From assembly GCF_964275005.1 (NCBI RefSeq), contig NC_092693.1, positions 20,575,706 through 20,639,705 of the forward strand: DNA of 64,000 nucleotides, given 5' to 3'. Below, in pieces: positions 714 through 61,700 of this stretch; the first letter of the stretch is position 1, and every line of letters begins with the position of its first letter. Source of the stretch: Diadema setosum (Eukaryota > Echinodermata > Echinoidea > Diadematoida > Diadematidae). Made by a program: the position numbers and the translations under genes. Under the pieces are notes generated by a model. The model did not search any database. It was not told the origin of the DNA and saw only the letters and a list, made by a program, of their open reading frames with translations.

Positions 714-14722
<14,009 letters not shown>

Positions 14723-38534: not shown

Positions 38535-39335
38535 AGCATGGTAAAAAGGAGATGTAAAGGGAATCAATGAAGACGGAGACAGGAGATGCCGAGAAAACGG
38601 AGGAGAGGGCAATCAAAATGAATGTGAGAATGCCGCAGTCTGTGAGAAGGTGATAGCCCTATCACTTATCTTATATACATATATGTGAAGGGAAATGTGA
38701 TGGACGTCCACAACAATTGGGAATGGAAGACGTAGGTTTATTCGTATTGAAACGCTAAGAACAGTTGGTTTGGTGGAAAACTTGGTGAGCAGAAAAATAG
38801 AAGTATAATAAATGCCCATAGAAAATCGAGCACGTGTGTGCATAACTATATAGGTACAGTATTCATGCTACGTTTGTCAAGAACGATTGTTTGATTGGCA
38901 TTGACATCTAATACTTTAAATCGTATTACTGTTTGATAGTCCTGACTTCGATCACGCGTCATAGTGGTGGTACAGACCAAGTTGGCATGTTAAGATTGAT
39001 TAAGACAATATTATTTCCATAACCTGTATATATTGTAATTATGATATCTCATTATGTGCGGCTAAACTGAAGTGAATACTGCTCTTAAAGCCCACTTTTA
39101 AGAGACATATTTGATACGACTTAGATTTTGTGTCTGCTGCGTCACCATATCTTTTTTTTTTCTAATTATGGCAACATGTTGTCATAATCATAAACATCTA
39201 ACTGTCCCAACAATACGAAGCATTGTCCCGCTGAAATGCTAGCCTCCATACATCCGCCCTCGTGAAATCAACTTGACAAAGGCAGTTCCTTGACTTCTCG
39301 CACTTCTTAACAGCATTTCTTCTTCTGTGTATAGA

Positions 39336-39338
<3 letters not shown>

Positions 39339-39400
<62 letters not shown>
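39339..39400. repeat. (AT)n microsatellite
   Basis: 62 bp of pure AT abutting the inverted-repeat element that starts at 39407. Confidence 0.98.
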
Positions 39401-39405
<5 letters not shown>

Positions 39406-39700
39406 GTAGTTGAAAGAAATTGGACTGAGGCGGGACGTTGCTCTCGATCTTAGTCTCCCTTTTATTTGTCAAGCTTTCGGCCCGTCATTGGGCCTTCGTC
39501 AGGACCTACCAACAGAACGATTATTACATGAATAATCTGATGTGTCATAATATTATAATATATAATGCAATTTCACATATTACCAATCTTCTAAATCATT
39601 TCCTTTATATACACAAATCAATCATTCAATTCAATACAAATATCCAATCTAACCTCAAATCATCATCAGAATAACATCAATGTCCAAAAAATATATAAAT

Positions 39701-39973: not shown

Positions 39974-40432
39974 ACCCACATACATACGCACATATATACA
40001 TATTCACATACACACACAAGCAAACACACACATACTCACATACGCACGCACACACACACACACACAACTCCGGTTGATATAATACTATCTAAATCAACAT
40101 ATCCTATTTTATATCACCGAAATATAATAGCGTCAACCCTGCCAAAAATATATCAGCTCTTAGATCAAATGTGTAAACAACAACAATTTCTGTAAATTCC
40201 CTGCGTGGGACTCGTGTGGTTATCGTGCATCCCAGCACCGTGTGCTCATATTCTGTTCAAAAATACAATAATTACCATTCAATCATTCATAATACTTGTA
40301 TTTGTATTGAATTGAATGATTGATTTGTGTATATAAAGGAAATGATTTAGAAGATTGGTAATATGTGAAATTGCATTATATATTATATGACACATCAGGT
40401 TATTCATATAATAATCGTTCTGTTGGTAGGTC

Positions 40433-40460
40433 CTGACGAAGGCCCAATGACGGGCCGAAA
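40433..40460 (+). ncRNA. Hammerhead-ribozyme-like core (right arm)
   Basis: CTGACGA (CUGANGA), hairpin GGCCC-AATGAC-GGGCC, then GAAA, in hammerhead order. Stem III and the cleavage site could not be placed, so this is a core-like motif only. A mirror copy lies on the minus strand in the left arm at about 39475-39502. Confidence 0.3.
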
Positions 40461-41149
40461 GCTTGACAAATAAAAGGGAGACTAAGATCGAGAGCAACGT
40501 CCCGCCTCAGTCCAATTTCTTTCAACTATATGCATCCAACAATGCGGCACCGCGTACGTTCGGGACCCAGGGAACTATTTCTCACATTATATATACATAT
40601 ATGTATATATATATCATATATATCATATATATATATATATATACAAGGCGGCTGGCATGTATGAATCATTTATCACAGTCAGGGTAAAAGGATGTCAATC
40701 ATAGTTTCTACACAATGATGTCGTGACAACAGTATAGACTTCACGATGTCATTTCTTACATGCTGACTTTACAAATACCTTTTCCACATAATCTCAGCAA
40801 AAAACGTGAATATTGTGCAGACGTATAAAAGAGAAAGTAGCCGGGCTGGCTCAAAATTTTCTATATGGCATCAGTCGGGCTTGTCCACGTAGAGCATTAC
40901 ATCAGGTATGGTCTATAGGTCAATGGTTTTTACAGGTAACTTGGAAAAGAAATATTTCAGATAATACCACCGTGATTACCCTGCTTTGCTGTTGCACCGT
41001 CATACTTTACTCTTAGTCTTGATGTGGCTATAACCTTGACACATACATGAACAGAAAATTATTGTCCTACATATCCACCGTCCAGCGATTCCGGGGCAAA
41101 ATGAAAAATACTGTTACTGATATCATTTTGATTTATGTTTCTGACACAA

Positions 41150-41599: not shown

Positions 41600-44500
41600 A
41601 CACGTAAAACTTTGGTTCGAAATTTCAAATCTAGTGAAGATTTGTGTGCAGAGCAATTGGAGACTTCTAAGAGAAGAAAATTGGCTCATTTGATTTCCAC
41701 AATATTTTATTGATTTTTGTATCACTGTTTTGTAAAGACATGTGATTTTACTTTCTATTAACAGAAAATCATTTTAAACCTCTTGTGAAACGTGATAAAA
41801 GGTTAACATTAAAACAAACTTACAGTCTTTTCGAAATACGCTCCTCCTTCTCGACCTTGACTGCTGGTGAAACTGCACACTTCAGGCGAATGCTCTTCGC
41901 AGATCCGACGAGGATCACCGCATCCGGCTGCATGAGGTCCTCGGGCCAGGTGTAGACGAAGTGATTCCTGGGAGGAAGGTTGGCCACGCCCCTTCCAACC
42001 TCTGACGTTATGGTGAATGCTGCGGTGCTGTTCCAGAATCTAGAAATGATGGTATAAATAGGAGGGGGTTGGAAAACAAAGCTCGGAGTAGAGTTCTTGA
42101 ACACTAAGTGTGCAGGCTAAGTTAGTACGCAAAATAAGCTTGATTTCAAACGTAAGATTCTTATCAAAAGATTACTTACTTCCATATGCTTCACAACCGA
42201 GAAAATACATATACTGAGAATAAGCAATATCAACTGTAAAAAAGACAAAAAAGTAGAATTACAATACAAAGTTTGAGTGTGTGTGTTTTGTTTTGTTTTG
42301 TTTTTGTTTGTTTGTTTTTGTTTTGGTTCTGCAATATAATAGGCCTATCTCTTTCATTTTGAGAACGTACAGAAATACAAAAACAAAGGTCTTGCTCGAT
42401 CTCAGGACAAGTCTACAGTGTGACGATCTGACAGGATGATTGAATAATTTTACCTTGTGTGTATTACTTCGAAAATCATGGCAGAGTCACTAATAATTAT
42501 TAACGCTCACTTTTGTTGAATACAAACATCGATTCAGGAAAGACATTTTTTTTAAACAGGAAATGATATACAGAAACAAAACAAAACAAAAAACTAGAAC
42601 ACTCTGAGAAGAACGACGACGCTATCCTGATCATAATAATTCTACTCACCGATCCAAGACTACTGGGGCTTTCTTGCTGATATTCGCCACCTGCGCAGCC
42701 AGTATGTAGTTCCCCAAGGTGTAAAAAGCCCCTCGAACCAGCTGGTTTTGAGAGTCAAACGCCTCCTTCAAGTGACGGATACAGCAGGGGGGAGACTGTC
42801 GGTGGACGGCCCCGATGGCCCGACTTAGATGCTGGCTGTACGCGGAGACACCTGTTACCATGACAACAATGGAAAATGCCCACTTGTTAAACTATTTTGT
42901 TGAATATTTCGGAGGGAAATTAGAACTGTTTGTTATGTTTGGAACGCACCGACGTGATATGATTTTGTTTGATGGTGGTAATGACTGTATATATGCATGA
43001 TCCAATATAATATGATTGTACATAATTGACTTAAGATGTTTTGAGACATCCCATTCAGTTGCTGGAATGAAATTAAGTGAAAGTGAATAGCAACGGAGAA
43101 AATCCAGGCCTAAATGACACTGAATATTTGTGTATGAGTATTATTGATTTGAGACGTTTTCAGAAGTGCGAGAGAAGAAACAGGTAGTCAATGTCATTTT
43201 AATTCTCGATACTTTGAGAGATAAAATTCTATATAACAATCGTATTCTAAGATTATCAAAAAAAAAAAAAAAAAAACACCCCAACCTGCAATGTGTTATA
43301 CGTTCCTACATATCCACAAGAAGAAAGACACTCACGAACACAACTATGATTTTCAGCTCGAGCAGGGCTCAGTGATCAGGTGGTTACGCACATTAGTTTG
43401 TTAAAGGAATCATCTTACCGGCATCATAGGTTCCTTCCAGGACAAGCACGGGCTGTCTTTGACTTCGCGTTATTTCAGTTTCGAAGTTGACTTGCTGTTT
43501 GACTATCCTCATCATTTGTCTTGCTTCTGGTAAATAGTCACACTGTAATGTAAACAATGAGTGTCAACGGAAGGATAGCTTTCGAAGTTGACGTTGAATT
43601 CATGAAATGTATCTAAACTTGATCTCAGGAGATTAGCCGCCAAGTTTGCCTTTGGGTAACTCGCGCATAAAAGTAGGCTATCCCAGTTTACATGCCACTC
43701 AAATGAACAAAGAACAAAAATCTAGACATAGAGCACACAAAAGCAGCGGTCACACTGGCAAAAGATCTTAAAGATCGCGATCTTTTGCCAGTTTGACTGC
43801 GACTATTAGCCAGTTCAGAGTTAGCTCATGATGGGACCATTGATACGAATGCCATTACTTTTTTCTCAATCGGATAGGGCACTTCACTCGTTTTCAGAGC
43901 GACACAAATGCATAACCTCTACGTAACAAGTCTGATTCAAAACTTAATAGCTATAATTTAGATGAATCCGACTTCAGAGCACTGTTAAGTCACTTATGGC
44001 GGTCTTACAGGGGGCTACCACCCACAGAAAGAAGAACAAAATAGCTTTCAATGGATTATGCAATGAGCCAACTGGATACGCTGCTATGCCTATGTCAGTG
44101 CGTAAATTATCTTTTGTTACGCATAAGGAGGAGCCCCCAGTTAGAAATTACCACAAAAAACAATACCCAAACCGAATAGGTCTATAGGCCCAATGAAGAG
44201 CTTGTCTTGAGATTGTACAAACTCCCTGCAGCGCGTTATCCTCAAAAGTTGGGATGTGACCCCGCCCACAGCCGTGTCCTCATACCGCGTATACATGCTT
44301 AACATAATCATACTCGTGCGGCGATACGAATATCTAAATTCGTTTCAAATTATCTCGCAATAATTTTCTACTATTTTCCTTCGAATCACTGGGATAATCC
44401 CACTAAAACCTTGGAATTCCAAACCAAGCTTCTGCTCGTTATCTCATCTGTCAATCATTGCTAAAGACCCGTTTAACAAAAGACACTGGAATGCACCTTT

Positions 44501-45701
44501 CCCTGGACTTAGCATAAATTCCACGTTACTAATATGACTAACAAAAGGCATTCTACGTAGGGAAAAATGCAAGCTATACTCAGTCTAGGAAAAGGTGCAT
44601 TCCAATATTTTTGTTAACCAATTAAGGCCCTATTATAGTACTTCAGCAGTTGTTGACAGATACGTGTCACTGGCAGAGTCTTCCTTTGGATTGAAGTTTT
44701 TGTTGTTGTTGTTGTGTATGTTGTCGACGTTGTTGTGTGTTTGTTTGGAGGGGTGGGTGTATCCAAGTGTTATCTGAAGAAAAATAGGAAAATTAACATG
44801 AAATGATAAGATATTCGTTTTGCCACATGTTGACATTATGTTGAGGGTATCATGAATCAACACAAATCAACATGGATTTTTACTGCATATAAGTCCTTTA
44901 AAAGTTTCTGTTCACCTTCGAGAGTATGTCCATGGCATCGTAGAATCTGTGGAAGACACTATTATTACTTCGATCAAGGTAGGCGGGATGATAGCTCAAT
45001 CTCTCAACAACCAAGAGATTCTCCTGAACTTCTCTCACACATCCCTCGAGGAACACGATGGTCTGAGTGTTCCTGCCGCCGGGAAGAATCCTGCACTTGA
45101 AGTAAGCAGCCTGCCTGTACTTCAGCGCCAGACGGTGCACGATGCCCTCGTGATTCTTGGGGTAGGTCAGAGGTAGGATCACGGTGAATCCACGCTCGAA
45201 GTGTTGCGGACGGTGGGGAAAGTAGGAGAAGTTGTTGAGTATCTCGCCGTCGGGGAAGGCGGCGCGCAAGTCGTCGAGGAGAAGCTGGTTGCAGAGGCAG
45301 TTTTGTACGTTGTCTTGCCGGGTGTCCAGCGGGTTGTAGGCAGTGATGGAGTACATGAATCGTCCGTGATCGAATCTGGCGGAGAAATTCGCAATGGGCG
45401 TCAGAAGGGGTTTGTTCTCATTCCGCGAAGGTCTTTTTGCTGGGTTCGCAGGAACCTGCGACTCTTGAACAAGTAAAATATCATCTGCATTACTTCTTTT
45501 CGTTTTCGCAGGAGGCGTACCGTTTGAAGGGACATCTTCCTCTATAGTAGCGATGGCTGTTTTTTCCTCAGGACATCTACTCCACCGCTTCTGAGAAAAA
45601 TATTCTTCATCGCAGAAATAAATCACTCCTTTGGATGTAACGATGGCCGATACACAGTCGAGCCAATTCACTTCCTCGTCTTCAGCCATGTCGGACACCA
45701 T
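41150..45701 (-). CDS. CMPK2: CMPK2-like (UMP-CMP kinase 2 / thymidylate-kinase fold) protein, probable pseudokinase, complete gene
   Basis: CMPK2 is a mitochondrial nucleoside-monophosphate kinase of the thymidylate kinase fold, interferon-induced in vertebrates. Exons, 5' to 3': 44916-45701, 43419-43542, 42650-42851, 41824-42039, 41150-41468; GT/AG, phase-consistent, 1647 nt, 548 aa (human about 449). The first ATG (45701) follows an in-frame stop near 45776. The N-terminal region has the family's pre-kinase segment (FTVILPLTYPKN..., DYLPEARQMMRIVKQ). Kinase core: VLVLEGTYDAG|VSAYSQHL (P-loop), RGAFYTLGNYILAAQVA, PVVLDRFWNSTAAF (DR motif kept), NLPPRNHFVYTWPEDL, QPDAVILV. At the P-loop, Gly-Val-Ser replaces the expected Gly-Lys-Thr/Ser, and the LID region (IRLKCAVSPAVKVEKEER) lacks the arginine-rich RLQGRG-type motif. 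About 60 residues extend beyond the usual C terminus (...GLKMWLEEDEIDADDQKIGFL). I infer loss of ATP-dependent catalysis; a regulatory or decoy role is possible. No mitochondrial presequence is obvious: residues 1-12 from the chosen ATG are acidic. Confidence 0.87.
41540..41597. repeat. (AT)n microsatellite in the last CMPK2-like intron
   Basis: 58 bp of AT about 70 bp 5' of the acceptor for the final exon (41468). Confidence 0.98.
43754..43792. repeat. Perfect 14-bp stem hairpin
   Basis: ACTGGCAAAAGATC (43754-43767) and its exact inverse (43779-43792) are separated by 11 bp. In the first CMPK2-like intron, just before a MITE-like end at 43806 (TTAGCCAGTTCAGAGTTAGC). Confidence 0.85.
44469..44618. 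mobile_element. Foldback MITE with GTTTAACAAAAGACA ends
   Basis: Left arm TTTAACAAAAGACACTGG, GAATGCACCTTTCCCTGGAC; right arm is the inverse (AGTCTAGGAAAAGGTGCATT, CCAATATTTTTGTTAACC). 150 bp, in the first CMPK2-like intron. Confidence 0.8.
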
Positions 45702-45798: not shown

Positions 45799-46255
45799 AC
45801 GGAACACGCCACCGCCCCATCATGCCGCACTTCTGCAAAAGAAAAAAAAAAAAAAGGCGCCACAAACTGCAGCTGTTCGGGTCATATTCACAATAATTCC
45901 AAGTGTTCTACAAACATTGCATCACGGAGCTACAACAACCACTACCTCCATGATTGCATCACTCTCGGTCGATTCCAGACAGGCATATGTGAACGGCGTG
46001 CATTCCTGACTACGTACTTATGCTGCCAGTTTGAGGGCCGATGGCAGACCAAATAAAGCTCACCTGCCCCTAAAAGAAAGATATGAAAGAAAGAATTTGT
46101 CTTCTTTACAGCAACAACATGATCTATCATTCTCAAGCATTGTCAAGTGTGGCCTTTCTTTCTCTCAAAACTTGTGGTAGATTCGTCCCTCTATTTGAAG
46201 AGCGGACTTTAACAGTTATTGTACTGTCTTGATCATGAACGTGCATGCCTTCATT

Positions 46256-58724: not shown

Positions 58725-61700
58725 TCAGTTGGTCGAAGTATGGGAGAATTTGAAGAGGCTTGTGTGATACGAGTCGTAATGCTCCGCTGGCTTCACGGCC
58801 GGGTTGATCCACCGCACCATCTCGCCCGCCTTCCGCGGCTCGATGCTAGCCGACACCAGCTTCGTGCTTAGCGAGCACGAATCGATGTTCCATTTCTGCG
58901 CGAAGCTGAAGCGGACGGCGGGCAGACCGATTTTCTCCTGGTGGCCCTGGACGTAAGCCTGCTTGAAGTTCTCGTTAAACTGCTGCATATCGAAGATCTT
59001 CGTCTCGACCTCGCGAGTCAGCTCAACGGCATCGTGATCCTGCCGCTGCGTGCTCGTCCAGAAGAGTTTTGTGTTGCAGAGCCGCTTCGCAAACAAGTCG
59101 CCGTTGCGAGTGGTGATCTGTAGTCTGCGTCATAATGCAGATGAATATTGATGTAATAAATCTCACTAGGGGAATTCTAAATACCGAGTAAGATGAGAAT
59201 AAGAACACAGCGTTTGAGGAATTTCTCCTTTTCCTTTGCCCGACCAACTTGCTTAGATCAAGGGAAATTTGATTTTTTTTTTTTTGGGGGGGGGCAAAAA
59301 GGCCCCCCCCCCCCCCCCCTTCAGATCTCGGTCGTGGATCGCGCGATCCTCGCGAAAATTTGCACTACGGTAGAGGCCAATGTAATCTACAAGGCTGTAT
59401 AGTTTGATTTTTCAAATCTTAATTTATGTATTTTATATCAATTAATTTATCCTAATCTATGCATTTTTTTTTTTGCCTATAGATAAAGAAATAAAGCTCC
59501 AAGACTTCTAATTTTTGGTGAACATATTCTTTTCAATATCCTCAACAATAATATTGAAGCAAAAATTCAGTTTCATAATTATGTTTTTTGTTGGTTTTTT
59601 TTTGTCAAAATTTGTAGCAGAAACTTTTGAAAGCATAGTTAGGCTAAAATAAATCATTATCAGCCATTGAAAGTAAAGATATTTATTTTTATATGAATTA
59701 ATTGCAAAAACACAGTTTACATTGGATTTGTACACAAAATCATGTTTTTGAGCAATTTTGGGGTCGACGAATTTGTTTCAAAGGGGCGTGGCTTAAAAAC
59801 AGTATGCCCGGGAGCGACAAATGTGGTCTCAAAAGTTGCGCGATACTTGAAAGAAAAAAGTCATAAAATGTCGCGGCGAGAGCATCACGCGTTGCGGAAT
59901 AATCGCGTGAAACGTCGATGGGGGGGGGGGGTAATTGGCTCAAAATAATTTCCTATCGACGAGAAAGATTAAAGAGAAAAAAACATCAATTCACACATGA
60001 TCAAAAAAAATGACGATGAAGAAGAAAGAAATCGGCGTGAAACAAACGAATAAAATAAACAAAATGCAATGCATACCCTTTGTCGAAATTCTGCAGGATC
60101 ATTTGCGTGTACTTCTGGTGAGAATCACGCTGCCAGGGCATGTTCTCGTAATGGAACGTTCCGTCCTTCTCCGTCCGAATTCTGGTGGTGACGGGGATGA
60201 GCTGCAACCCGGATCTGCTGGATGGGGCCACCGTTGATGCTTGGCTATCGGGTTTGTAAAAGACCAGGCAACCCAAGGGCTTGTTGACTGTCTCCTCCAG
60301 AACGCAAGTACCCAGGAATCTCACGGAGATCTTAAACTCGTGAGCTGGAACGGATCGATTCAAGATGGATTACCAGTCATCAAACTTATACCTCGATTTC
60401 GAATACTTTAGTATATGGATGATTCAAAAAACCCCGAAAGGACATTAACTTAGGCCTACAAAATAGACTTAAAAACTCTGTAAAACCTTCAATATTCTGA
60501 GTTAATGCACATAGTTCGTAGAGTGAGCATCTGAGGAAAAATGAAATAACAATAAACAATATCTAATTCAACCATGATATTTCAGAAAATACGGCAAGGT
60601 TGACAAACCGCTGGAAGGATCAGCCTGAGAGGATATGTCCAAATTGCCAATTATCTTAAGAACGGGAGAGGGAGTATTAAATCACGGCAGATGTGAACGT
60701 TTGTTAAAATTATATTATCATGGGTACACTATCCATTGAGTAATGAGATTACTTTTTTACAATTTCACTCTAGAGAAATGAAATTCGCAATGGACAAAAA
60801 CATTTTCAAAAAAAAAATATGCATACGCACAGTTGGAAAAAAGAGCAACTCTAGATTGTAGAAAAGGGTAGAAACCTGTGCACGGCAACAAAATACACAT
60901 AACCTTAAAAACACCGATACGTACACATATCATAAGCACATGTGTATGTCTGCTTCTATAGCAGAATTAGAAAAGATATATTTATTTATCTTAAATACAA
61001 TGCAGTTAGGAAAATGCTGCAGCATAATATTGTAATCTTAGCTGACCTTCTGGTAACTTGGGATCGCTCTCCACTGATGTGCTTGTGCTTGAACTTGTGC
61101 TTGTGCTTGCGCTTGGAGAGGCTCGCACTTTAGAAGGCCCGGAGGCAGCGTCGTGTCTGTTGGCACTGGTAGTGACGCTGTTGGCGGCACTGGCGGGTCT
61201 GGGGCTGGGGGGAACTACTGCAACTTGGAGGTCTTCATGCGTGCGACCTGAAGGTTGATTGCCTGATTAAAAAAAAAGAAGGTCTTCTTTCTATAATGAT
61301 ATACTTGATTTCTGTCATTCCCTTAACCTTACTTGCTCAGAGACTTCTCAAACAAAAGACGTAACTGTGAAAACGACTAAACAAAATAATTTCACATAAG
61401 CATGAAATTGCTTGGCAATGTGATTGTTTTCGGCATGTTTTCTCACACCAGAGAGCTGAATCTGTTCTGTAGATTTAATCACATAAAGTCATTTCCGTTT
61501 GTACGTTAATTTGCCGTCTTTGCCGTGGAATGTGATGAGATCCTTACGATTTCTTTTAAATTAATTACACACGTTTTCAGTATAATTATATGAAAACTCT
61601 TCTTCCTTGTACCTTGTGGAATACTCAACGCTGGATGTAGGGCCTTTGGAGTATAAAAAAACCTACAACTTCATAATCATACTGATCATACATTCATATA

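What the first reader, a model, noticed from the sequence alone, without database searches (positions are those of the whole stretch)
42845..43425. CMPK2-family protein with its P-loop lysine replaced by valine
Splicing 43419 to 42851 gives LEGTYDAG-VS-AYSQHL where the family has EGxDxxG-K-T/S. The other two AG sites near the acceptor break the frame. The lysine that holds the ATP phosphates is gone, while the DR motif (VVLDRFW) and the surrounding fold are kept and the frame is fully open. That combination suggests a conserved pseudokinase, not decay.
Basis: partly seen in the sequence, partly recalled or inferred. Interest (0 to 1): 0.8.

Follow-up and report, generated by a model that had tools for sequence, protein, structure and literature searches.

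The report
Kinase-dead CMPK2 in a sea urchin
The only copy of the antiviral gene CMPK2 that could be found in this animal's genome lacks residues its enzyme part needs to use ATP but is otherwise intact, and its usual partner gene, viperin, was not found.

Summary
A clean five-exon minus-strand gene (45701 to 41150; 548 aa; four GT-AG introns) encodes a CMPK2-type protein: N-terminal domain plus thymidylate-kinase-like domain. The only GT-AG junction that keeps both sides reads LEGTYDAG-V-S, so the P-loop lysine is valine (V305). Putting K back in silico moves the Pfam score only from 17.1 to 19.7 bits (human 67.7).

In the window's own 913-Mb assembly no second CMPK2 was found; the one thymidylate kinase found has a normal P-loop. 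A strong bindin match suggests a sea urchin. Viperin, the partner CMPK2 feeds with CTP, gave no match; a radical-SAM control (lipoyl synthase) did.

Best reading: a CMPK2 that lost its ATP site, perhaps after viperin was lost, and is kept for its N-terminal or a binding function. Not shown: conservation in relatives, transcription, or inactivity in an assay. 'Conserved pseudokinase' is plausible, unproven.

The parts
44916..45701 (-). Exon 1, coding part (from ATG MVSDMAED): N-terminal domain, 262 aa. A poly-T acceptor would start this exon at 45832 (5'UTR part)
   Evidence: start codon and exon start inferred
45105..45347 (-). Stretch of the N-terminal domain with weak DUF3293 resemblance (residues 119-199)
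   Evidence: PF11697 E 0.0014, 19.7 bits, below the cut-off of 25
43419..43542 (-). Exon 2: CDYLPEAR... to LEGTYDA-G, first half of the P-loop
42852..43418 (-). Intron 2 (567 bp), phase 1 inside the P-loop glycine codon
42847..42849 (-). GTC = V305, where the P-loop lysine is expected
   Evidence: and the sequence
42650..42851 (-). Exon 3: V-SAYSQH... AFYTLGNYI ... VVLDR (DR motif)
41824..42039 (-). Exon 4: FWNSTA... VYTWPEDL.PD, then the degenerate PEER/lid segment
41150..41468 (-). Exon 5: C-terminal helix region, a tail of about 64 aa beyond the recalled human end, and stop
58728..60369 (-). Neighbour gene upstream, not part of the CMPK2 gene: interferon regulatory factor (IRF-3 association domain in two reading-frame segments)
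   Evidence: PF10401 E 3.7e-16 and 3.9e-6

Best explanation
The gene is a full-length CMPK2 homologue whose C-terminal kinase domain can probably no longer use ATP in the normal way. Shown from sequence: the lysine that holds the ATP phosphates is valine, the Asp two residues after EG is Tyr, and the PEER/lid segment is degenerate, while three substrate-side core segments, the DR motif, the splice sites and the N-terminal exon are intact. Shown for this assembly: it is the only CMPK2 found, and viperin is not found. Inferred mechanism: in vertebrates CMPK2's kinase makes CTP that viperin converts to ddhCTP. If this lineage lost viperin, the kinase became dispensable and its ATP side decayed, while the protein was kept for another job, most likely that of the N-terminal domain, with the former nucleotide pocket acting at most as a binding module. 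The confidence is for 'ATP site lost, protein kept'; for the coupling to viperin loss I would give about 0.35.
For: Gene model and V305. The loss is uneven: three core segments 13/23, 11/21 and 14/25 identical to recalled human CMPK2, against P-loop 5/17 and strand-4/lid 5/27. Pfam thymidylate kinase: window 17.1 bits, window with K put back 19.7, human 67.7, human with K-to-V 59.9, so the lysine is only part of the shortfall. Single copy. The DTYMK P-loop exon of the same genome reads EGCDRSGKST. Viperin: no match by family or protein; control lipoyl synthase found at four places, best E 1.3e-23; the human CMPK2 query finds this gene at about 40% identity. Third-position GC 0.54-0.67 in four exons and 0.41 in exon 2, against intron GC 0.26-0.40. 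Precedent: kinase-dead human CMPK2 (D330A) and the mitochondrially targeted N-terminal domain alone still restrict Zika virus (PMC10150978, passages).
Against: No relatives, transcripts or assay. Helix 1-2 (9/31), the linker (8/21) and the C-terminus (10/38) are also poorly conserved, so the decline is not confined to the ATP side. The predicted N-terminus is acidic and shows no mitochondrial presequence by eye, whereas the human N-terminal-domain activity needs mitochondrial targeting. In chicken the kinase Asp135 was critical for antiviral activity (PMC9132166, passages). Viperin's absence rests on one assembly of unmeasured completeness in which withheld stretches read N, and the tool itself warns that an empty answer without a genome known to match shows nothing. 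The order of events is conjecture.
Confidence: 0.62

Rival explanations
1. Early pseudogene: the gene lost its selection recently (perhaps with viperin) and has not yet gained stops or frameshifts; no function remains.
For: Loss of conserved residues is broad and the partner was not found. No expression evidence.
Against: 548 open codons, four introns with intact splice sites, third-position GC above intron GC in four of five exons, and the heaviest loss on the ATP side rather than evenly spread.
Confidence: 0.2
2. Still an active kinase: ATP is held by other residues, as in the WNK protein kinases where the lysine moved (recalled), and the divergence is ordinary drift of an echinoid CMPK2.
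For: DR motif, FYxLGNY helix and WPEDL..PD are kept.
Against: Valine in the P-loop, Asp-to-Tyr and a degenerate lid together; no Lys close to the loop by eye. P-loop mutations may abolish TMK activity (PMC9132166, passages).
Confidence: 0.1
3. Splicing or assembly artefact: an alternative junction, or an unassembled allele or paralogue, carries the canonical loop.
For: An AT-AC pair (43414|42837) would read GK-S.
Against: It lacks GT-AG signals and removes three helix residues. The V codon differs from Lys codons at all three positions. The Asp and lid changes lie outside the junction choice. No second copy.
Confidence: 0.06

Closest known systems
CMPK2 (UMP-CMP kinase 2, vertebrate)
   Same: Two-domain layout; PEAR linker, FYxLGNY, DRxW.STA and WPEDL..PD motifs; 36% identity over the kinase domain (human recalled)
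   Different: P-loop K and Asp lost, lid degenerate, a tail of about 64 aa, no obvious mitochondrial presequence; no viperin found in the genome
MAGUK guanylate-kinase-like domains (PSD95 GK; PMC9005747, passages)
   Same: A nucleotide monophosphate kinase fold that lost catalysis; there the nucleotide site became a phosphopeptide pocket
   Different: Different kinase family; any binding role here is conjecture
Kinase-dead human CMPK2 D330A (laboratory mutant; PMC10150978, passages)
   Same: CMPK2 without kinase activity, N-terminal domain intact
   Different: Here the change is natural and hits the P-loop and lid, while an Asp stands in the DR motif
DTYMK thymidylate kinase (this genome, contig C22)
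   Same: Same fold family (PF02223)
   Different: P-loop exon canonical, EGCDRSGKST

Membership tests
CMPK2 | N-terminal domain spliced to a C-terminal TMPK-like domain | tested here: met
   Exon 1 joins exon 2 in phase; the junction SVFHRFYDAMDILSK-CDYLPEAR looks CMPK2-like by eye against recalled human sequence; no transcript
CMPK2 | Best genomic match to the human CMPK2 kinase domain | tested here: met
   Two of three hits in 913 Mb are exons of this gene (E 3.0e-11, 3.9e-11); the third, E 9.97, looks like a multicopper oxidase by eye; human query recalled
CMPK2 | P-loop GxxxxGK[ST] | tested here: not met
   GTYDAGVS
CMPK2 | DR catalytic motif (DRxWHSTA) | tested here: met
   DRFWNSTA, His to Asn; motif residues as listed in PMC9132166 (passages)
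CMPK2 | PEER/lid segment | tested here: not met
   5 of 27 identical to recalled human over strand 4 plus lid
CMPK2 | Nucleotide kinase activity | not testable with these tools
   needs an assay
CMPK2 | Mitochondrial targeting sequence | tested here: inconclusive
   Predicted N-terminus MVSDMAEDEE is acidic by eye, but the start is not settled
Thymidylate kinase PF02223 | Pfam gathering score 27 bits | tested here: not met
   17.1 bits, E 0.0046, aligned only to profile 76-170; the whole-genome PF02223 search did not list this gene, only three DTYMK-locus matches
Conserved pseudokinase | Same substitution and purifying selection in relatives | not tested
   No related animal genomes reachable; viral and prokaryote scans found no relative

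The most novel reading that the evidence does not exclude
A sea urchin lineage lost viperin and kept its partner CMPK2 as a protein without kinase activity: a natural separation of CMPK2's two activities, with the N-terminal antiviral or scaffold function surviving alone, possibly within an IRF-led response (an IRF gene is the next gene found upstream).
Probability: 0.3. Interest if true: 0.75.

Novelty: new variant of a known kind. Interest (0 to 1): 0.58.

Why it matters
Whether CMPK2 fights viruses by making CTP for viperin or through its unexplained N-terminal domain is disputed: Zika work says the N-terminal domain suffices (PMC10150978), chicken work says the kinase Asp is critical (PMC9132166). 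An animal with no detectable viperin and a CMPK2 whose ATP site is gone would be a natural test of the second activity. It would also be another nucleotide kinase turned pseudoenzyme, beside the MAGUK guanylate-kinase domains.

Tried and rejected
Sequencing error in one base: rejected, the codon differs from Lys codons at all three positions and other conserved elements are changed too. Read-through 'GK' at the donor: rejected as uninformative. Alternative exon 3 in the window: tblastn of the full protein against the window at E up to 10 gave the gene's own exons and two chance-level hits (E 6.2 and 8.7). Viral and prokaryotic relatives: none confirmed. Structure prediction: switched off, so the fold was not modelled. 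PDB sequence search: no match to the kinase domain, none meaningful to the N-terminal exon (best E 0.52). NCBIfam: no family for the kinase part. ISRE-like GAAANNGAAA sites are enriched across the whole window (18 against 5.0 expected), so no claim for this promoter. Literature: of the papers listed, none describes, by title, abstract start or opened passages, a kinase-dead CMPK2 gene or viperin in echinoderms. The lists were capped (20 of 607, 12 of 1,247, 15 of 9,702; none of the 15 holds 'CMPK2'), and passages of only seven papers on these subjects were opened. This is no proof that nothing is in print.

My first splice script had an off-by-one and was replaced. A script meant to read the fetched DTYMK locus L008 failed on the file name and was not repeated; DTYMK was judged from the ORFs of L002.

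Full report
WHAT IS THERE. The finding lies inside a complete minus-strand gene. Coding exons: 45701-44916, 43542-43419, 42851-42650, 42039-41824, 41468-41150, giving 548 codons plus stop (1,647 nt). All four introns are GT-AG: donors GTGAACAG, GTAAGATG, GTGAGTAG, GTAAGTTT; the acceptor tract of intron 2 is mixed rather than pyrimidine-rich. The first ATG of the long exon gives MVSDMAED; a poly-T acceptor would start that exon at 45832, in the untranslated part. The translation start is inferred.

THE P-LOOP. Enumerating donors from 43470 to about 43300 against acceptors down to about 42780 gave 27 open-frame pairs; the only GT-AG pair that keeps LEGTYDAG and the downstream frame is 43419|42851. 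It yields E-G-T-Y-D-A-G-V-S-A-Y-S-Q-H. Valine 305 (GTC) stands where the P-loop lysine belongs, and in register the EGxD aspartate is tyrosine. One AT-AC pair would read GK-S but removes three helix residues and has no other support. The straight read-through GGT AAG at the donor spells G-K in any phase-1 G|GTAAG donor and says nothing.

HOW WIDE THE LOSS IS. Pfam thymidylate kinase scores 17.1 bits (cut-off 27) and aligns only to profile 76-170 of 185; restoring K in silico gives 19.7, recalled human scores 67.7 and human with K-to-V 59.9. The lysine is thus one of several losses.

GENOME CONTEXT. The window is on contig C9 of a 912.7-Mb, 102-contig assembly. A protein search with this kinase domain returned only its own four exons, four of four matches. 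The recalled human kinase domain returned three matches: two exons of this gene (E 3.0e-11 and 3.9e-11) and one at E 9.97 that looks by eye like a multicopper oxidase. The N-terminal exon is also unique. A PF02223 family search listed three matches, all in one locus on C22 and not this gene; the P-loop exon there reads EGCDRSGKST and matches human DTYMK structures. Bindin (PF02084) is present with E 2.9e-54, so the animal is most likely a sea urchin (that bindin marks echinoids is recalled). Viperin: TIGR04278 gave 0 matches in the own genome (in that call's 14 control genomes it rings in 10, none over the cut-off), and the human RSAD2 core gave 0 matches at E up to 10 (recalled sequence checked against PDB 5vsl, 622.6 bits). 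As a control, lipoyl synthase TIGR00510, another radical-SAM enzyme of similar length, gave four matches, best E 1.3e-23. The tool warns that an empty answer without a genome known to hold the query shows nothing; the controls reduce this doubt but do not remove it, and a planned DTYMK protein control did not complete. Viperin is reported in a mollusc (PMC9334734, passages) and a cnidarian (PMC13319465, passages), and a Tribolium protein matches mouse Rsad2 at E 8e-121 (PMC2656531, passages), so an ordinary urchin viperin should be easy to find. Upstream on the same strand lies an IRF gene.

HOW IT PROBABLY WORKS. CMPK2 in vertebrates has a kinase that supplies CTP to viperin and a separate N-terminal domain; kinase-dead D330A, and the N-terminal domain alone when sent to mitochondria, restrict Zika virus (PMC10150978, passages). 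A review says that viperin activity depends on CMPK2 and that 15% of bacterial viperin genes sit beside a CMPK2-like kinase (PMC11249213, passages). With viperin gone, the supply function has no customer. The simplest account is that the ATP site decayed while the N-terminal domain, and perhaps the nucleotide pocket as a binding site, stayed under selection. Against this: chicken CMPK2 needs its kinase Asp for antiviral activity (PMC9132166, passages), human N-terminal-domain activity needs mitochondrial targeting that this predicted N-terminus does not show, and selection was not measured.

VERDICT. Observation confirmed and extended; 'catalytically compromised CMPK2' likely; 'conserved pseudokinase' open. 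New variant of a known kind.

Noticed in passing
own genome, whole assembly: No viperin (RSAD2) match by family or protein search, although a radical-SAM control is found.
   Followed up: partly
window 45347-45105 (minus), inside exon 1: The CMPK2 N-terminal exon resembles DUF3293 (PF11697, E 0.0014, 19.7 bits, below the cut-off of 25). Possible origin of the N-terminal domain, whose function is unknown.
   Followed up: partly
window 58728-60369 (minus): Interferon regulatory factor gene (IRF-3 domain) upstream of this CMPK2 on the same strand.
   Followed up: partly
window 45823-45668 (minus): Upstream reading frame MMGRWRVPLYTYSRASRHIVCK... (51 aa), basic and without acidic residues, in another frame than the protein: a uORF, or a presequence in a form I could not splice.
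   Followed up: partly
window 39201-39671 and 40282-40701: Near-identical translated stretches on opposite strands, a foldback or MITE-like element 3' of the gene.
   Followed up: no
window 4911-6101 (minus): Tubulin-tyrosine-ligase-like gene exons (PF03133).
   Followed up: no
window, whole: GAAANNGAAA motifs 18 against 5.0 expected, many in A-rich runs.
   Followed up: no
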